Positions 16,388 through 61,502 of a DNA stretch of 64,000 bases are shown piece by piece. Below the pieces are notes generated by a model. That model searched no databases and was not told the DNA's origin. It saw nothing but the letters and a program-made list of their open reading frames with translations. Numbering within the stretch: the stretch's first letter is position 1; each line of letters starts with the position of its first letter. Source of the stretch: Gordius sp. MW1 (Eukaryota; Nematomorpha; Gordioida; Gordea; Gordiidae); contig OZ038532.1 of the NCBI GenBank assembly GCA_964036665.1, forward strand, positions 7,998,001 through 8,062,000. The letters are read 5' to 3'. Position numbers and translations under genes: made by a program.

Positions 16388-17220
16388 TACTCTCGATAGA
16401 TAAGATATAATGCTAAGGGACTAGAATTCTTCCTGGAACGCCTGGAACACTCAAAATGAGGTATCGATGCATTCGACCAAAGTTTAACTGACAAAATGTC
16501 TATGAATGTCTATGAATATTTAACGAAAATGCTCCTTGAGAGGGGTTTAGAGAGACGAAAACGTTAGGGTTAGAGTTAGATGCACACATTTAATTCGACA
16601 AATGCATTTTCGTAGATATTTATTTGTTTTTTGCTTTTTTGTCAATTGCAACTGAATCCAAAATGATACGCTGGTTTAACTTTTTATAGACTTTTTGTGT
16701 CTAAAACTCAGTTTTAAATTAATGATATCTTGAATTTTGCCAATTGCACTTCCAATCATCGGGCCCCAGTCTAGTTGCCAATGCTGAGTCAATGATTAGA
16801 ATGAATGCGCGACGATCGCGTTGTCATGTAATCGCTCGAAGTCTCAAAGAGCGATTTAACAGGAACATCATCGCCGCTTTTAACATAGTGAGCCGTTATA
16901 TATTTATAATAAACAGGTATACCATGTATGTGTGCTTAAAAGCCACTCACCACGGCTGGCTAAATATTCTCAAAGGGAGAGCCGGGGGGGGGGGTGAGGC
17001 AATCCTTTATTTTATTATAGAATAGCCTTCTTTAAATTGATAGGAAAAAGATCTCCCGAAGAAAAATACTCAGCAAGTTTTCTTTTGCGCCAAAAAATAG
17101 GAATTTTAATTGCCAAATACAATTATAAGGCATTTTCCGACACCTGGCCTCTGGCCCTCGATGAAGATGAAGAGTAGTCACGCTTTTTATTTATCTATTT
17201 ATTGATCGTGTTTTATATTA

Positions 17221-19118
17221 ATTGCTATGCAATTTATGGGCTCGTTTTTGGTTGTCCGTTGATGTCCGTCGTCCGTTGTCTGTCCGTTACCCTATCTATT
17301 TGCATTGGGTATATTAGGTTATCGATTTTTAATTGCTATGCATGAGAAAGAGGTGCCCCACCCCTCATCTCTATCTCCCTCGCTGTGTTATTTTTAGAAT
17401 TAATGCATAATAGGTGCCCCACCCCTCATCTCTATCTCTCTCGGTGTGTTATATATAAGATTTGTTAAATTATCTATTATATAAACATAAATAAAAGTTG
17501 TTTACTTTTAATTGCTATGCAATTTAACTAGTTATATAATAAGCATAAATAAAAGTTGTTTACTTTTAATTGCTATGCAATTTAACTAGTTTTTGTTATA
17601 TAATAAACATAGATAAAAGTTGTTTACTTTTAATGCTATGCAATTTAACTAGTTATATAATAAACATAAATAAAAGTTGTTTACTTTTTAATTGCTATGT
17701 AATTTAACTAGTTTTGGGGTTAGAATCCCGGAGTTTTTTTTGACTCTTATGATTGTTCTTGTTACTATCATTGATAATAAGAATTTTTGGCCGTCCGCTG
17801 GCTGCTGACCAATGAAAAAAATGACCATTGGCCAAAATGTGAATCGAAATTATTTTTTTCGTTTTTTTTTGACTATTATGATTGTTCCTGTTTCTACCAT
17901 TGCTATTATGACTTTTTGGCCGTCCGCTGGCTGCTGACCAATGTTATATAATAAACATAAATAAAAGATGTTTACTTCTAATTGCTATGCAATTTAACTA
18001 GTTTTGGGGTTAGAATCCCGGAGTTTTTTTTGACTCTTATGATTGTTCTTGTTACTATCATTGATAATAAGACTTTTTGGCCGTCCGCTGGCTGCTGACC
18101 AATGAAAAAAATGACCATTGGCCAAAATGTGAATCCGAGTTTATTTTTTCGTTTTTTTTTACTATTATGATTGTTCCTGTTACTACCATTGCTATTATGA
18201 CTTTTTGGCCGTCCGTTGGCTGCTGACCAATGGAAAAAATGACCATTGGCCAAAATGTGAATCGAAATTATTTTTTTCGTTTTTTTTTGACTATTATGAT
18301 TGTTCCTGTTCCTACCATTGCTATTATGACTTTTTGGCCGTCCGCAGGCTGCTGACCAATGGAATAAAATGACCATTGACCAAAATGTGATTCGAAAATT
18401 GTTTTTTCGTTTTTTTTTGACTATTATAAATTTATATCCACTTTTACCGTGTCCTGCCTGCTGACCAATGGAAAAAAATGACCATTGGCCAAAATGTGAT
18501 TCGAAATTTTTTTTTCGTTTTTTTTTTACTATTATGAATTTATATCCACTTTTACCGTGTCCTGGCTGCTGACCAATGGAAAAAAATGACCATTGGCCAA
18601 AATGTGTTTCGAAAATTTTTTTTCCGTTTTTTGGCTATCATTGACTTATAGAGTATCTGTGGGTACTGACCAATAGAGAAAAAGTGACCATTGGCCAAAT
18701 TTTTGATTTTTTTAATTAAAAATTGTTCAAATTCAACAAAAAAATTCTCCCAACAATTCTGCAAATTCTTAACATTGTGTTGTTTTATAATATAATGTTT
18801 GTTAGACCCATAATCACTAAAGGCCATAAAAACTAATGTAATACGCAACTAGATGCAAACACTAAATCTAACCCTTGCCTATATTACATTTTGCCGTTAT
18901 TACATTTTGCCTATAATGGAAAATTTGTATAAATAATTTATTAATCATTAGGCATTTAATACCCCCCCTATAGGCATTCTCGCCCCTTCCCACCTTTCTC
19001 GCCCATAAATTGCATAGCAAATATGATACATTTATACGAAGTACAGATGAGTCGTCCCCCCTTCCCTTTCCCTCTTCCCTTCCCTTCTCCCCCTTCCCAC
19101 GAGGGCCGAAGGCCCGAG
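17221..19118 (+). repeat. CCAAT-hairpin array unit (family D), single copy
   Basis: Three parts. (i) 17221-17460: ATTGCTATGCAATTTATGGG, CCGTTGTCCG repeats and two copies of GAGGTGCCCCACCCCTCATC. (ii) 17460-17720: tandem repeats of about 60 bp built on TTGCTATGCAATTTAACTAG. (iii) 17720-18720: tandem repeats of about 115 bp, each with CCAATGG, an A-run loop and CCATTGG, then TTTTTTCGTTTTTTT and GACTATTATGA. The distal end is an AT region, CTTTCTCGCCCATAAATTGC, and a hairpin GGGCCGAAGGCCC. The right arm of the 31.3-34.7 kb locus is the same unit. No transposase or complete terminal structure is seen. Confidence 0.8.
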
Positions 19119-19498
19119 TTTTTTTATATATATAGATTTTACCTAATAAAGATTTTTAACTTTAAAATAAAAAAAATTAAGATTGCAATTTACACATAAC
19201 CCATTCCTTATCTAAGCTACTGCCCTTTCTCGCTTTCTTGAAATGTTGAAACTTGGTGCCATTACATCGATATAAACCTTATACCGACTCGCGTCTGTAC
19301 ATGAGTGCTGTGGGGAGTTCGAGGTTTCGCTAATAGACTTATGGCTCAACAAGACTAATGGTCGACTTCCAACTGTTTTTCAAGTTTCGACCGAGCCTAG
19401 AGATCGACTAAACAAAACCCAGAAAATTTTCAGTCCCAATCCAGGCTACTACTCCCTTTTTCTAAAGTAATTCAAGGACCCTCGTCTATCTATAACTT

Positions 19499-31108: not shown

Positions 31109-31342
31109 CTTAAAAATGATAGGATTTGTATGATGAAATAAAGGAGACTAGAGATATTGAGTTAGGTGAGCGAATTCCTTAATTATCCGATAGCTATGAG
31201 TATTTAATTTGATATTTAAAATAGATTGTAAAATAGATTTAATAATTTGTTCGAAGAGGTTTAAAATTTCCGAATGTAAAAAGCACTTGAAGAGCGAAAA
31301 CAGTGCTGAATTTTTGAAATATTAAATAGATTATTATATAAA

Positions 31343-34300
31343 CTCGGGCCTTCGGCCCTCGTGGGAAGTGGGAGAAGGGAAGGGAAGAGGGGAAGGGAAG
31401 GGGGGACGACTCATCTGTACTTCGTATAAATGTATCATATTTGCTATGCAATTTATGGGCGAGAAAGGTGGGAAGGGGCGAGAATGCCTATATGGGGGTA
31501 TTAAATGCCTAATGATTAATTAATTATTTATACAAATTTTCCATTATAGGCAAAATTTAATATAGGCAAAATGTAATATAGGCAAGGGTTAGGGTTAGAT
31601 TTAGTGTTTGCATCTAGTTGCGTATTACATTAGTTTTTATGGCCTTTAGTGATTATGGGTCTAACAAACATTATATTATAAAACAACACAATGTTAAGAA
31701 TTTGCAGAATTGTTGGGAAAAATTTTTTGTTGAATTTGAACAATTTTTAATTAAAAAAATAAAAAATTTGGCCAATGGTCACTTTTTCTCTATTGGTCAG
31801 TACCAACAGATACTCTATAAGTCAATGATAGCCAAAAAACCGGAAAAAAATTTTTGATGCTCACTTTGGCCAATGGTCATTTTTTTCCATTGGTCAGCAG
31901 CCAGCACACGGTAAAAGTGGATATAAATTCAAAAGAGTAAAAAAAACGAAAAAAAATTTTCGAATCACATTTTGGCCAATGGTCATTTTATTCCATTGGT
32001 CAGCAGCCAGCGGACGGCCAAAAAGTCATAATAGCAATGGTCGGAACAGGAACAATCATAATAGTAAAAAAAAAACGAAAAAAATAATTTCGATTCACAT
32101 TTTGGCCAATGGTCATTTATTCCATCGGTCAGGAGCCAGCGGACGGCCAAAAAGTCATAATAGCAATGGTAGTAACAAACAATCATAATAGTCAAAAAAA
32201 ACGAAAAAATAAACTCGGATTCACATTTTGGCCAATGGTCATTTTTTCATTGGTCAGCAGCCAACGGACGGCCAAAAAGTCTTATTATCAATGATAGTAA
32301 CAAGAACAATCATAAGAGTCAAAAAAAACTCCGGGATTCTAACCCAAAAACTAGTTAAATTGCATAGCAATTAAAAGTAAACAACTTTTATTTATGTTTA
32401 TTATATAACATTGGTCAGCAACCAGCGGACGGCCAAAAAGTCATAATAGCAATGGTAGAAACAGGAACAATCATAATAGTCAAAAAAAAACGAAAAAAAT
32501 AATTTCGATTCACATTTTGGCCAATGGTCATTTTTTTCATTGGTCAGCAGCCAGCGGACGGCCAAAAATTCTTATTATCAATGATAGTAACAAGAACAAT
32601 CATAAGAGTCAAAAAAACTCCGGGATTCTAACCCCAAAACTAGTTAAATTGCATAGCAATTAAAAAGTAAAGAACTTTTAATTGCTATGCAATTTATGGG
32701 CTCGTTTTTTGTTGTCCGTCCGTCCGTCCGTCTGTCCGTCCGTCCGTCCGTCCACCCCTATCTATTTGCATTGGGTATATTAGGTTATCGATTTTTTAAA
32801 TTAATGCATGAGAAAGAGGTGCCCCACCCCTCATCTCTATCTCCCTCGCTGTGTTATTTTTTAAATTAATGCATAAGAGGTGCCCCACCCCTCATCTCTA
32901 TCTCCCTCGGTGTGTTATATACAAGATTTGTTAAATTATCTATTATATAATAAACATAAATAAAAGTTGTTTATTTTTAATTGCTACTTTTAATTGCTAT
33001 GCAATTTAACTAGTTATATAATAAACATAAATAAAAGTTGTTTACTTTTAATTGCTACTTTTAATTGCTATGCAATTTAACTAGTTATATACTAAACATA
33101 AATAAAAGTTGTTTACTTTTAATTGCTATGCAATTTAACTAGTTTTTGTTATATAATAAACATAGATAAAAGTTTTACTTTTAATGCTATGCAATTTAAC
33201 TAGTTATATAATAAACATAAATAAAAGTTGTTTACTTTTTAATTGCTATGCAATTTAAGTTTTGGGGTTAGAATCCCGGAGTTTTTTTGACTCTTATGAT
33301 TGTTCTTGTTACTATCATTGATAATAAGAATTTTTGGCCGTCCGCTGGCTGCTGACCAATGAAAAAAATGACCATTGGCCAAAATGTGAATCGAAATTAT
33401 TTTTTTCGTTTTTTTGACTATTATGATTGTTTCTGTTTCTACATTGCTATTATGACTTTTTGGCCGTCCGCTGGCTGCTGACCAATGTTATATAATAAAC
33501 ATAAATAAAAGTTGTTTACTTTTAATTGCTATGCAATTTAACTAGTTTTTGGGTTAGAATCCCGGAGTTTTTTTGACTCTTAAGATTGTTCTTGTTACTA
33601 TCATTGATAATAAGACTTTTTGGCCGTCCGCTGGCTGCTGACCAATGAAAAAAATGACCATTGGCCAAAATGTGAATCCGAGTTTATTTTTTCGTTTTTT
33701 TTTGACTATTCTGATTGTTCCTGTTACTACCATTGCTATTATGACTTTTTTGCCGTCCGCTGGCTCCTGACCGATTGAAAAAATGACCATTGGCCAAAAT
33801 GTGAATCGAAATTATTTTTTTCGTTTTTTTTGACTATTATGATTGTTCCTGTTCATACCATTGCTATTATGACTTTTTGGCCGTCCGCTGGCTGCTGACC
33901 AATGGAATAAAATGACCATTGGCCAAAATGTGATTCGAAAACTTTTTTTTCGTTTTTTTTTGACTATTATGAATTTATATCCACTTTTACCGTGTCCTGG
34001 CTGCTGACCAATGGAAAAAAATGACCATTGGCCAAAATGTGATTCGAAAATTTTTTTTTCGTTTTTTTTACTCTTATGAATTTATATCCACTTTTACCGT
34101 GTGCTGGCTGCTGACCAATGGAAAAAAATGACCATTGGCCAAAGTGAGCATCAACATTTTTTTCCCGTTTTTTTTGGCTATTATTGACTTATAGAGTATC
34201 TGTTGGTACTGACCAATAGAGAAAAAGTGACCATTGACCAAATTTTTTAATTTTTTATTTAAAAATTGATCAAATTCAACAAAAAATTTTTCCCAACAAT

Positions 34301-34661
34301 TCTGCAAATTCTTAACATTGTGTTGTTTTATAATATAATGTTTGTTAGACCCATAATCACTAAAGGCCATAAAAACTAATGTAATACGCAACTAGATGCA
34401 AACACTAAATCTAACCCTAACCCTTGCCTATATTACATTTTGCCTTTATTACATTTTGCCTATAATGGAAAATTTGTATAAATAATTATTTAATCATTAG
34501 GCATTTAATACCCCCCTATAGGCATTCTCGCCCCTTCCCACCTTTCTCGCCCATAAATTGCATAGCAAATATGATACATTTATACGAAGTACAGATGAGT
34601 CGTCCCCCCTTCCCTTCCCCTCTTCCCTTCTCCCCCTTCCCACGAGGGCCGAAGGCCCGAG
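31343..34661. repeat. 3.3-kb inverted-repeat (palindromic) CCAAT-hairpin element, family D
   Basis: Both outer ends carry the same hairpin, CTCGGGCCTTCGGCCCTCG at the left and its reverse complement at the right. The left arm (31343 to about 32680) reads inward through a CATCTGTACTTCGTATAAAT block, GGGTTAGATTTAGTGTTTGC, an ORF-like block, then the CCAAT-hairpin tandem array. The right arm (about 32680-34661) repeats these in inverted order and adds the GTCCGTCC microsatellite, GAGGTGCCCCACCCCTCATC pairs and the TTGCTATGCAATTTAACTAG tandem. The right arm equals the single unit at 17221-19118. The right end abuts the Gypsy LTR exactly. No transposase is found. Confidence 0.8.
31618..31857 (+). 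other. ORF-like block conserved in all three family D arms
   Basis: A frame beginning with TTG or an equivalent start is open for about 79 codons and includes AFSDYGSNKHYIIKQHNVKN and NCWEKFFVEFEQFL. The same frame is open at 18552-18848 and 34074-34391 (minus strand) with only a few changes (N/K, E/D, I/N). It runs into the CCAAT array. It could be a captured gene scrap or simply sequence conserved because the copies are young; I do not recognise a protein family. Confidence 0.3.
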
Positions 34662-34703
34662 TTATAATGATTAAGTTTTGTTTGTAATTTGTTTTATTTC
34701 TAA

Positions 34704-56394: not shown

Positions 56395-58475
56395 ATGGAT
56401 ACCATTTCTGAAGTAGATAATAGGAACGAGGCAGCTCAATCTACCTTTTTACCTTGGCCTTCAATGGAAGAATACTTCAAATATGTATCTTCAGATAAAG
56501 ATTCATTCAAAGTTAAGTGCAAACTATGCACTAAAGTTGTGGCGGCTTCAAGAACCTCAACAGCCAATTTATGGAGACATATAAAGGTAATAAGAATAAC
56601 GTATTATAATTTATAATATAAAATCTAGGTGTCTCACTATCAAAAACATGATGAGATTAAGAAGGCTGTCAAGAATAAGGCTGGAAAAAGTTGTGAAGCT
56701 AACAAAAAGTTAACACAGACCTTAATTGACAGGCCTTTAAACCAAAATTCCCCAATGGCCATTATCAAATATATAATCAATGGTAATCAACCATTTTCGC
56801 TATGTGATGATGAGCACTTCAATGAATTGTTGAGGGCTTTTAATCCAAAAGCAAAAACAATTTGTAGGCAAACACTCACAGGGAAGGTGATGAAATTTGC
56901 TGCAAAGATGAAAGATACAGTTAGAACAAAGTTAATGGCACCCAAGTATGTATGTACAACTGCAGACTGTTGGACAGCATTTAATAAGTACTTATTAATT
57001 TCTCTAAAATTGTCAATTTATTTTTTTTGTTAGGTCATTTATTGGGGTAACAGCTCATTGGATAGACGATGAGAGTCTTAAAAGAGTTGATGCAGTTCTA
57101 GCCTGCAAATGTTTAGAGGGGAGGCACTCTTTTGATGTTATATGCAAATCCCTTACTCAAATTTACAAAGAGTACCATATTCAAAACAAAAATATCTGTA
57201 CAATTACTGACAACGGATCTAATTTCGTTAAAGCATTCAGGTACTATTTATATAATTCTTCTTTCCTAACTTTTATATAGGATTTTTAATGAAAATGATG
57301 AGATGCAGGAGGAAGTAGTATCTCTTAAGGATATACTTGATCGGGCTGGTTTAGAGGGACATAATCAAAATGATTATGATTATCTACCCAAACATAAGAG
57401 ATGTGCTTGTCACACCCTAAATCTGATTGCTACAAGTGATGTTAACAAGCTTTTGAAAAACAATAATGCGTTTACTAAATTATATAATTCTTCATTCTGT
57501 AAGTGCCAGGCACTTTGGAACCTCAATAGCAGATACACATTATCGGCACAAACCATACGTAACCGTTTTGGGTGTAATATACCCTACCCTGTAGTAACTA
57601 GATGGAATTCAACATTTGATTCCATCTCTGTTATAATAAAAATGATTCAAAATAAGCCTAGTGATTTTCATACTCTCTGTGATGAATTGAGGCTTGAAAG
57701 GCTTTCTTTGGAAGAATCAAATTTTTTACAGGAATATCACTTAGTGAGTCATTATTTTAAATTTATTTAATTTTTTTAAGGTAATGGAGCCACTTGCTAA
57801 GGCCCTTGAAATTTTGCAGGGGCAAACATACATGTATATGGCTTATTATACACCTACCATAAGCCAGATTCAGTTATGTCTGCAGAATATGGTAAACTTA
57901 AAATGGGCTCAACCATTAAAAGATGCTATTTTGAAAGGAATAAACATCAGGTATCAAATATAAATGGATTCTAATATATAAATCATATGGTTTTAAGATT
58001 TCCTGATCTCTATGATGAGGAAAACATTATTGCAGCTGTCCTGCATCCAATTTTTAAGACAGACTGGGCTTGGATCCGGTCACCAGAAAATGTGGAGGAA
58101 AGGTCCAGAATCTTAAAAGCAATAAATTTACTAGTGCCTCAAACAACTGAAAATATGGAGGTGCATGATACACAGAATGGTTTAGATTTTTTTGATATAA
58201 TACGTGAGAATTCTAATAAAGAAACAATTGAAGACTATATTAAATTAAATAATACCTCATTCGATGTATTCGATGAATTTCCCAATCTAAAGCAAATTTT
58301 TATAAAATTTAATGTTTGCCTCCCATCTAGTGCTCCAGTTGAAAGGCTTTTCAGTCTGGGAAAGCTTATATTTGGAGATAAACGTACTTGTTTATTAAAC
58401 GATAATTTTGAGAACAATATTTTATTAAAGTCCAATGGACATCTACTTTCACATGATTTTTATTGTAAATTATAA
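56395..58475 (+). CDS. hAT family transposase (BED zinc finger, hAT C-terminal dimerisation)
   Basis: Six exons in phase, 622 residues: 56395-56586, 56629-56987, 57034-57240, 57281-57743, 57781-57950 and 57998-58475. All five introns are 37-47 bases with GT-AG ends. The N-terminus is a BED finger (CKLC, LWRHIK, then H after splicing, residues about 45-70). The RNase H-like core has TTADCWTAF, TITDNGSNFVKAF and the CACHTLNLI motif, followed by VVTRWNSTFDS, AAVLHPIFKTDW and the C-terminal SAPVERLFSLGKLIFGDKR region used for dimer formation. No stop or frameshift is present. A poly(A) signal AATAAA is at 58491. This start is preferred because it precedes the BED domain in the usual way. Confidence 0.95.
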
Positions 58476-60050: not shown

Positions 60051-61502
60051 ATGCCCCAAGATATTAAATTTCGAAAACTGCTGCCTTATGATATAGATGA
60101 AATAAGATGCTTATGTCAGAAATGGTTTCCTGTAAGGTAAAATTGGCATAAATTTTTTTTAATTCTTTACAATGTTATTTTACTATACCAAATCCAAAAA
60201 AGCTTTTTCTTTAGAGAAACATATTCATCTAATAGTATATTAACTTTATAATAGATACCCTGATACATGGTACATAGACATCACTAATTCATCAAGCAAG
60301 TTGCATGTTGATTTAAGTTCCCGATATTATACTGAATGTGCAATTGAATCAACATCATCACAAATAGTTGGTATACTGGTTGCTGAACATAAGTTTCTAT
60401 ATGAATGCAATGTAGAAGATCTAAAGAATTTATTAAATTTCCTTAATAATCCTATGGAATCCACAAAAGTAAAAAAATTATTTTAAAATATAATTTATTT
60501 TAATATCCAAAACTTATTTTGTATAATATTGTTAATTTCTAGGTGGCCTATATCATGGTTCTAGGGGTGGCAGAAAATTTTAGAAATTTAGGAATAGCAA
60601 CAAATCTATTAAACAATTTGTTAGCTCATTTAATAAATTCTACTTGTCAAGAAACATTAAATTACTTTGCTTTCAGCCTCATTCCCAACACTTTAGAGGA
60701 AAATCAATTAAAACTTTTCCCCATGTCTTATAGAATTTTGCAAGATGTCTTGTTTGTATTTAAGTCAATTTTAACAATAACCAAAATTAAATGCCTCAAA
60801 TATTTTAGTCATACATCTTCATTACCTCCTAATTTGAGCACAAAGAGATCTGTAAAAGATTTTGATAATGGTTTAAAGCCCCAATTAAATTTAAACTTTA
60901 CATTATCTGAAGAAAAATCAAATCAGCATTCTTGTAAATGTATTTATCTCCATGTATTAGCTTCAAACCACAATGCAAGAAAGTATGTTTTATATAGATT
61001 TAATGTATAATTGTTAAAATAATGTCCTAAAAATTTTATTTTTGAATGCTGGATTTATTTATTTAAAGCTGTTTTGTCATTTAGTATATTAGTTTTATAA
61101 TATTAAGCTAAATTCTCTGTTTTACAAAGAAAGCTGTATTTACTGAGAAGAACAAAAAGTAATTTAAAGTTATAAACCCTCTAAATAATTTTCATCATTA
61201 CTTTTTAATGTTTGCTCACTAAAATTTACAAATTGCAGACATTCTGTCATTATTTTTGACCAGTCTTGCTATTTTTTGCTAGATTTTATGAAAAGCACAA
61301 GTTTAAACGCCACAACTTTCTACCCAACTACTACAACGTTCCCTCTGGTTCTGGTCATGCATATTCCTATGTTCTTTACATAAATGGTGCTTCTGCACCC
61401 ACAAATATAAACAATCACACATTAAATGCCCTCAACAAAATGACAAACTTAGTGCATTGGCCCACCTCACTTCAAAACTCATCCAAACATCATACTCACT
61501 GA
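60051..61502 (+). CDS. NAA60: N-alpha-acetyltransferase 60 (GNAT family), insertion-bearing
   Basis: NAA60 acetylates N-termini of membrane proteins on the cytosolic face of the Golgi. Four exons join in phase: 60051-60136, 60255-60468, 60543-60982 and 61283-61502, 319 residues (human protein 242). Matches include KWFPVR-YPDTWYIDIT, SSQIVGILVAEHK, KVAYIMVLGVAENFRNLGIA (the acetyl-CoA R-x-x-G-x-A loop), KCIYLHVLASN, FYEKHKFKRHNFLPNYY and YSYVLYINGA. Between LLNNLLAHLIN and the strand CKCIYLHVL there are about 90 extra residues with no family counterpart. The C-terminus ends in TSLQNSSKHHTH and lacks the long amphipathic-helix tail of vertebrate NAA60. An upstream ATG at 60041 starts an overlapping 8-codon uORF. 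AATAAA at 61503 overlaps the stop region. Confidence 0.92.

What the first reader, a model, noticed from the sequence alone, without database searches (positions are those of the whole stretch)
31343..34661. A 3.3-kb palindrome of CCAAT-hairpin arrays
Two roughly 1.3-2.0 kb arms in opposite orientation share, in the same inward order, an outer hairpin GGGCCGAAGGCCC, several unique blocks and a tandem array whose 115-bp unit itself folds (CCAATGG, A-run loop, CCATTGG). A single arm occurs at 17221-19118. The arrays put dozens of CCAAT/ATTGG words close together. It has no transposase, does not look like a plain MITE, and could be a foldback element, a Helitron-derived array or an amplified regulatory or origin-like sequence.
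Basis: partly seen in the sequence, partly recalled or inferred. Interest (0 to 1): 0.72.

Follow-up and report, generated by a model that had tools for sequence, protein, structure and literature searches.

The report
Two head-to-head rolling-circle transposon copies
The 3.3-kb palindrome is two copies of one very abundant, protein-free rolling-circle transposon lying head to head, one of them cut short where the other begins; it is not a new kind of foldback element, although the hairpin at the end of this transposon closely resembles a published centromere motif of root-knot nematodes.

Summary
Each arm is a copy of one non-autonomous Helentron-type (HINE/DINE-1-like) element: 5' end T(A/T)TT|AATTGC with a 20-bp subterminal repeat, (GTCC)n, tandem 58-bp and ~107-129-bp (CCAAT) arrays, the same 20 bp inverted near the 3' end, and terminal hairpin GGGCCGAAGGCCC-GAGT next to T's. 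The unnamed 212-Mb eukaryotic genome holds 7,890 matches to the 5' end and 4,766 to the 3' end; reversed controls 0. 17218-19119 is a complete single copy. The palindrome is a complete copy (32680-34662, +) abutting an opposite copy lacking its 5' part (31342-32679, -). The same junction occurs at 18 places with varied sequence on both sides; at 8 of 18 the interrupted repeat resumes after the inner copy's 3' end, so these are self-insertions into a T-run of the 58-bp repeat. The window copy lacks that resumption, so its last step is inferred. CCAAT stems show no sign of maintained pairing (at most 2 of 198 units changed at a shared pair). No autonomous partner was found; the 20 best Rep loci are canonical Helitron type. 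Unexpected lead: the terminal hairpin matches 18 of 19 bases of the Meloidogyne holocentromere '19-bp box'.

The parts
32680..34662 (+). Complete element B (right arm), 5' AATTGC ... GAGT 3'
   Evidence: 5' and 3' termini located; same termini in 15 full-length copies of 1,130-2,073 bp in held sequence, two of them in the window
31342..32679 (-). Element A (left arm), opposite orientation, lacking its 5' part; ends at the T4 of a 58-bp repeat (AACTTTT)
32673..32701 (+). Head-to-head junction AACTTTT|AATTGCTATGCAATTTATGGGC; middle of a long perfect-looking hairpin
   Evidence: same junction at 18 loci with at most 2 mismatches, the window included; strand folds at -20 kcal/mol, z -7.8
32682..32701 (+). 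5' subterminal inverted repeat TTGCTATGCAATTTATGGGC, 2 nt from the 5' end
32714..32753 (+). (GTCC)n microsatellite
32791..32918 (+). 61-bp tandem repeat, 2 copies
32936..33258 (+). 58-71-bp repeats holding the T4 insertion target and subTIR-like TTGCTATGCAATTTAACTAG
   Evidence: the target word is present 7,582 times genome-wide at up to 2 mismatches
33259..34184 (+). ~107-129-bp CCAAT tandem array of B (limits approximate)
31834..32633 (-). ~107-129-bp CCAAT tandem array of A (limits approximate)
34549..34568 (+). 3' subTIR of B (inverse of the 5' subTIR), 94 nt from the 3' end
34646..34662 (+). 3' terminal hairpin GGGCCGAAGGCCC + GAGT of B
31346..31358 (-). 3' terminal hairpin of A
31441..31460 (-). 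3' subTIR of A
17218..19119 (+). Complete single element S, with a paralogous empty site in L064

Best explanation
The arms are two copies of one non-autonomous Helentron-associated element (HINE, DINE-1-like). Such elements are thought to be copied by rolling-circle replication from the 5' end to the 3' hairpin by a Rep/helicase supplied in trans, and to insert into T-runs (established for the family in print, not shown here). The element's own 58-bp repeats contain such T-runs (AACAACTTTTATTTATG), so copies insert into one another; an insertion on the opposite strand gives a head-to-head palindrome. Shown: element anatomy, defined ends, copy number, T-run targets, and 8 pairs of junctions that mark nested insertions at exactly this target. 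Inferred: that the window's palindrome arose the same way and then lost the interrupted copy's 5' part, by deletion or by recombination between the inverted arms; and that a Helentron, not found here, mobilises the family.
For: Ends and copy number: 7,890 matches to the 28-base 5' end and 4,766 to the 27-base 3' end, controls 0. Target: TTAA before TTGC in 47 of 49 non-redundant 5' ends in held loci; T at +1 in 93%, +2 in 91% and +3 in 84% of 43 3' flanks. Empty site for S: paralogue GTGTTTTATGTTTTTCATAATAAG in L064, interrupted in its T-run in the window with no duplication beyond T's. Self-insertion: junction at 18 loci with at most 2 mismatches, 20 with at most 3; the interrupted target resumes after a 3' end (GAGT|TTTATTTATG... 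and near variants) at 24 places, and 8 of the 18 junctions pair with one of these on the same strand 1.8-5.6 kb away; the intact target is present 7,582 times. From T-run frequency alone about 4 (T>=3), 10 (T>=4) or 25 (T>=5) hits are expected, so no special attraction is needed. At a further junction (C4:8749432) the interrupted element's 5' part also lies beyond the inner copy. Tandem 3'-to-5' junctions: 77. Architecture as published for HINE/DINE-1 (PMC4067079 and PMC7492417, passages).
Against: In the window the interrupted copy's 5' part was not found in either flank, and a genome search with the joined flanks gave no convincing empty site, so this locus needs a second event. 8 of 18 junctions, the window among them, have no exact partner, and 2 pair on the opposite strand. 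At C4:8749432 the inner copy has no recognisable 3' end within the 2.4 kb read and a stretch of the target repeat stands on both sides of it, which a plain insertion does not give. The 150 bp before the junction are 99% and 94% identical between the window and two other loci (L094, L090), so register alone does not prove that all events are separate. No autonomous partner: a Rep 4.4 kb from a matching 5' end shares only about 75-80 bp with the family, and the 20 best Rep loci carry the canonical Helitron signature RGLPH, not the Helentron RGSPH (signature from PMC4067079). The 3' subTIR lies 94 nt from the 3' end, against 38-60 in the mite HINEs.
Confidence: 0.82

Rival explanations
1. A true foldback (FB/Galileo/Tetris-like) transposon in which the whole palindrome is the mobile unit with long inverted terminal repeats.
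For: Long inverted arms with tandem arrays and identical outer ends. The outer-arm sequence next to the junction is 99% identical at L094 (150 bp). Tetris, a foldback with tandem repeats, is described in a passage of PMC7492417.
Against: Single elements with a distinct 5' end occur throughout the sample (15 full-length 5'-to-3' copies in held sequence; 7,890 matches to the 5' end). Across the window and 8 other junctions the 150 bp before and 170 bp after the junction are 46-99% and 68-96% identical; at L094 the inner copy differs from the window's (86-88% in the aligned blocks) and the outer element continues beyond it. No TSD at S.
Confidence: 0.05
2. The palindrome is a recombination product: a nested inverted insertion followed by inversion between the two inverted arms, giving flipped isomers.
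For: At 2 of 18 junctions (C3:7309976 and C3:17855421) the resumed target lies at the 3' end of the truncated arm on the opposite strand, as an inversion between the inverted arms would produce; in L099 the complete copy ends in unrelated flanking sequence.
Against: In the window neither 3' end is followed by the resumed target; the flank TTATATAATAA is too short and AT-rich to count. At one of the two loci (L097) the other arm has no recognisable 3' end within the 2.35 kb read.
Confidence: 0.25
3. Assembly artefact: a false inverted duplication of a single copy.
For: Palindromes are a known assembly hazard (recalled); no reads were available.
Against: The arms differ in length and sequence (93% over 922 bp and 85% over 1,314 bp); the junction type recurs at 17 other loci.
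Confidence: 0.03
4. The CCAAT arrays are a selected regulatory (NF-Y-like) or structural device for host or element.
For: 26 CCAAT/ATTGG words in 3.3 kb against 13.9 expected; the right half TGACCATTGGCC is well kept.
Against: Perfect stem in 66 of 198 units; changes in the left half only in 118, right half only in 3, both halves in 11, of which 2 touch a shared pair; one unit folded gives z -1.2. Variants seem inherited by unit position, so the counts are not independent events.
Confidence: 0.08

Closest known systems
HINE / DINE-1 (non-autonomous Helentrons; PMC4067079, passages seen)
   Same: Palindromic subTIRs 2-4 nt from the 5' end and near the 3' end, 3' stem-loop, microsatellite, optional tandem repeats, T-rich target without TSD, very high copy number.
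   Different: 20-bp identical subTIRs; 3' subTIR 94 nt from the end; hairpin 4 nt from the end (8-35 in the mite families); several different arrays in one element; autonomous partner not identified here.
Cg_HINE elements of Pacific oyster (PMC7492417, passages seen)
   Same: GTCY/GTCC microsatellite in the left flank of several elements, satellite-like central arrays, 3' palindrome, oligo-T targets.
   Different: Subterminal repeats normally 11-12 bp; their monomers were not compared with these arrays here.
Meloidogyne holocentromeric 19-bp box (sequence printed in PMC10630426, passage; original paper PMC8097292 not held)
   Same: TCGGGCCTTCGGCCCTCGC against TCGGGCCTTCGGCCCTCGT here: 18 of 19 bases, including 5 of 6 bases outside the hairpin core.
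   Different: There it is conserved in CenH3-associated tandem repeats (passage of PMC9673304); here it is the transposon's 3' end, once per element.
Tetris / FB foldback transposons (recalled; Tetris named in a passage of PMC7492417)
   Same: Inverted arms with tandem repeats.
   Different: Here the palindrome is not the mobile unit.

Membership tests
Helentron-associated element (HINE/DINE-1) | Subterminal inverted repeats of at least 11 bp near both ends, one 2-4 nt from the 5' end | tested here: met
   20-bp identical subTIRs, 2 nt from the 5' end and 94 nt from the 3' end
Helentron-associated element (HINE/DINE-1) | Stem-loop near the 3' end | tested here: met
   GGGCCGAAGGCCC 4 nt from the end; 4,766 matches genome-wide to the end word that holds it, control 0; 5-bp stem in the fold, although the 111-nt region as a whole folds no better than shuffles (z -0.8)
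Helentron-associated element (HINE/DINE-1) | Insertion into T-rich sequence with no target-site duplication beyond T's | tested here: met
   TTAA before TTGC in 47 of 49 5' ends, T-rich 3' flanks in 43, one paralogous empty site, 8 nested insertions into a T4 target
Helentron-associated element (HINE/DINE-1) | GTCY-type microsatellite and central tandem repeats (common, not obligatory) | tested here: met
   (GTCC)n at 32714-32753 and arrays
Helentron-associated element (HINE/DINE-1) | No coding capacity | tested here: met
   No stop-to-stop ORF of 120 aa in the palindrome; a 218-aa reading across the S array is repeat translation
Helentron-associated element (HINE/DINE-1) | Autonomous Helentron partner with the same termini (Rep/helicase with endonuclease) | tested here: inconclusive
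   150 Rep matches scored of 714 candidates; the 20 best, the only ones read, are canonical Helitron type; one candidate near a matching 5' end not convincing
Foldback transposon | The palindrome, with both inverted arms, moves as one unit with a TSD | tested here: not met
   Single elements with their own 5' end are the unit; both sides of the junction vary between loci; no TSD at S
MITE | Terminal inverted repeats with fixed-length TSD | tested here: not met
   Inverted repeats are subterminal; the two ends differ; no TSD at S
Centromeric 19-bp box of Meloidogyne | Association with CenH3 | not testable with these tools
   No chromatin data; only sequence similarity

The most novel reading that the evidence does not exclude
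The CenH3-associated '19-bp box' of Meloidogyne holocentromeres is the 3'-terminal hairpin of a Helentron family. That is, the conserved sequence of an animal repeat-based holocentromere would be a rolling-circle transposon terminus, spread as scattered short arrays by aberrant rolling-circle replication. It matches this element's terminus at 18 of 19 bases, including 5 of 6 bases outside the self-complementary core.
Probability: 0.28. Interest if true: 0.8.

Novelty: new member of a known kind. Interest (0 to 1): 0.38.

Why it matters
It explains a striking palindrome as an ordinary outcome of a very abundant rolling-circle transposon hitting its own T-rich internal repeats, and supplies the termini, target and one empty site for annotating thousands of copies. 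The lead with wider reach is the near-identity between this terminus and the Meloidogyne centromere box: if it holds, transposon termini, not independent selection of a protein-binding box, could have seeded an animal holocentromere. In plants, some Tyba holocentromere repeats have already been linked with a Helitron (passage of PMC10048060).

Tried and rejected
Foldback element, plain MITE, satellite without ends, origin-like or regulatory array: see rivals. Rfam: 0 matches at gathering scores in the window. ARAGORN (bacterial settings): no tRNA gene in the window or in 6 loci, although a T-arm/B-box-like word recurs in the element. Autonomous partner: one Rep (C1:3257635) with a listed exact 5' end 4.4 kb upstream (C1:3253186); the stretch after that 5' end shares only its first 75-80 bp with the family; not accepted. 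Empty site for the palindrome: a 341-base join of its flanks found a high-copy repeat that starts about 30 bp outside the right end, and four of 41 listed matches cross the join by 2-18 AT-rich bases; not accepted. Host identity: no (TTAGGC)4, two internal (TTAGG)5; not resolved. Pfam on 9 window ORFs gave one GNAT acetyltransferase and one sub-threshold hAT dimerisation match, of no help for identity. Literature: no passage that I saw links the Meloidogyne box to Helitron or Helentron ends (searches; passages; PMC4595182 does link other satellites of C. elegans to Helitrons); the defining paper PMC8097292 is not held, so it may say so.

Full report
What is there. The window lies at C6:7998001-8062000 of an unnamed eukaryotic genome of 211.8 Mb in 12 contigs. 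The inverted arms are as described: 472 nt at 97% complementarity at the outer ends and many shorter pairs inside, with tandem arrays of about 58-71 and 107-129 bp. Read in detail, the right arm (32680-34662, +) is a complete element of about 1.98 kb. The left arm (31342-32679, -) is the same kind of element in the opposite direction, cut short on its 5' side. The copy at 17218-19119 is a complete single element. No stop-to-stop ORF of 120 aa lies in the palindrome. There are no Rfam matches at gathering scores in the window.

Anatomy of the element. From 5' to 3': T(A/T)TT|AATTGC, in which TTGCTATGCAATTTATGGGC is a 20-bp subterminal repeat whose core is nearly palindromic; (GTCC)n; two 61-bp repeats; 58-71-bp repeats; the CCAAT array; the same 20 bp inverted, 94 nt from the 3' end; a C/T-rich stretch; GGGCCGAAGGCCC; GAGT; then T's. 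In 49 non-redundant 5' ends from held loci (not counting those chosen by the junction search) TTAA precedes TTGC in 47. In 43 3' flanks T stands at +1, +2 and +3 in 93, 91 and 84% (that call's 5' table also contains 3' subTIRs, so I use for the 5' side). Genome-wide, the 27-base 3' end has 4,766 matches and the 28-base 5' end 7,890, at up to 2 mismatches, with 0 for the reversed controls. Fifteen full-length copies in held sequence, two of them in the window, are 1,130-2,073 bp long with 4-7 array units.

Empty site. The flanks of the single copy S match a paralogous stretch of L064 that has no insertion there. The empty paralogue reads GTGTTTTATGTTTTTCATAATAAG; in the window the element sits inside the T-run, with no duplication other than T's. 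This fits published HINE empty sites, where T's flank both ends and no target modification is seen (PMC4067079, passages).

How the palindrome formed. The junction word AAAGTAAA(C/G)AACTTTT|AATTGCTATGCAATTTATGGGC occurs at 20 places at up to 3 mismatches; 18 of them, the window included, have at most 2 mismatches and are the same junction; the two with 3 mismatches look different. I read about 150 bp on each side of 8 of the other 17; all 8 have an element of the family in antisense upstream. The sequence on the two sides varies: over the window and these 8, identity is 46-99% in the 150 bp before and 68-96% in the 170 bp after the junction. The window shares its upstream register with two of the 8 (L094 99%, L090 94%) but not its inner copy (86% and 83% downstream). 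So the set was not amplified from one palindrome, although register alone does not separate every pair. The left side is the interior of the family's own 58-bp repeat, whose intact form AGTAAACAACTTTTATTTATGTTTATTATATAAC is present 7,582 times at up to 2 mismatches.

Test of self-insertion. If a junction is a self-insertion, the rest of the repeat must follow the inner element's 3' end. A search for GGCCCGAGT, 0-5 bases, then the rest of the repeat gave 24 places; 8 of the 18 junctions pair with one of them on the same strand 1.8-5.6 kb away. Two more (on C3) pair on the opposite strand; their sequence fits a nested insertion followed by inversion between the two inverted arms, an inference from two loci, at one of which the other arm has no recognisable 3' end. 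The other 8, including the window, have no exact partner. One of those 8 (C4:8749432) I read 2.1 kb further: the interrupted element's 5' part does lie beyond the inner copy, but the inner copy has no recognisable 3' end there and a stretch of the target repeat stands on both sides, so a plain insertion is not the whole story. From T-run frequency in the window, 7,890 insertions would hit these targets about 4 (T>=3), 10 (T>=4) or 25 (T>=5) times, so the 18 need no special attraction. Direct tandem junctions, a 3' end followed by a 5' end within 6 bases, number 77.

What stays open for the window copy. I did not find the missing 5' part of the left arm in either flank, and joined flanks gave no convincing empty site. 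The right flank belongs to another high-copy repeat from about 30 bp outside the element. Insertion followed by loss, or by rearrangement through the inverted arms, is therefore inferred, not shown. Long reads were not available.

The CCAAT hairpins. Of 213 array units collected from held sequence (76 distinct), 198 could be parsed; 15 were dropped because they did not fit the pattern. The seven-base stem is perfect in 66; the left half differs alone in 118, the right half alone in 3, both in 11, of which 2 touch a shared pair. Variants seem inherited by unit position, so these are not independent events, but there is no sign that pairing is maintained. One unit folds at z -1.2, the 3' end region at z -0.8. 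The very stable fold is the junction itself (z -7.8), a by-product of placing two 5'-type sequences head to head.

Autonomous partner. The genome has many Helitron Rep domains: 150 scored of 714 candidates. The 20 best, all that I read, carry RGLPH, which PMC4067079 gives as the Helitron signature, against RGSPH for Helentrons. The partner of this family is therefore not identified; it may be among the candidates not read, or lost.

A lead outside the question. A literature search for the element's own words returned one paper, PMC10630426, which prints TCGGGCCTTCGGCCCTCGC as the 19-bp box used to mark Meloidogyne centromeres (passage). PMC9673304 (passage) describes the box as conserved in five divergent tandem-repeat families associated with CenH3. 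The terminus here is TCGGGCCTTCGGCCCTCGT: all 51 matches to the first 18 bases in held loci (some loci overlap) end in T, and the exact C form occurs 8 times genome-wide. Thirteen of the 19 bases are the hairpin core, on which the paper was found; of the remaining six, five agree, for which chance is about 19 in 4,096 (my arithmetic, even base composition). Shared ancestry, shared constraint on rolling-circle termini, or coincidence all remain possible. The host here is not shown to be a nematode. I saw no statement of this link in the passages seen or in the search listings, but the defining paper is not held.

Verdict. A real and well-described observation; a new family of a known kind (HINE), with the palindrome best read as self-insertion followed by a further change at this locus. 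The interest lies in scale, in the recurrent self-targeting, and above all in the testable link to a centromere motif.

Noticed in passing
31346-31358, 34646-34658, 19103-19115: The 3' terminal hairpin with its flanks matches the published Meloidogyne holocentromere 19-bp box at 18 of 19 bases.
   Followed up: partly
9731 (+) and 21276-21230 (-): Two further 5' ends of related Helentron-like families with a similar subTIR but different bodies.
   Followed up: no
element interior, e.g. 33258-33280; L002:2834; L099 about 1630-1710: A tRNA T-arm/B-box-like word GGTTMGAATCCCGG recurs inside and beside the elements (108 matches at up to 1 mismatch in held sequence), suggesting captured tRNA- or SINE-derived sequence; ARAGORN finds no intact tRNA in the window or 6 loci.
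   Followed up: partly
C3:7309976 and C3:17855421 (L097-L100): Two loci where the interrupted target follows the truncated arm's 3' end on the opposite strand, as inversion between inverted arms would give.
   Followed up: partly
C4:8749432 (L094, L103): Head-to-head junction whose outer element resumes beyond the inner copy, but with a stretch of the target repeat on both sides and no recognisable 3' end of the inner copy; unexplained.
   Followed up: partly
34692 onward: A different high-copy repeat starts about 30 bp outside the right arm; it occurs in series spaced about 5.1 kb on C1 and C8, which looks like tandem copies of a roughly 5-kb element.
   Followed up: no
57975-58475 (+): hAT-like dimerisation region just below Pfam's cut-off, with ORFs at 56629-57770 in the same direction.
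   Followed up: no
60543-61010 (+): Exon-like ORF with a GNAT acetyltransferase match.
   Followed up: no
   Followed up: no
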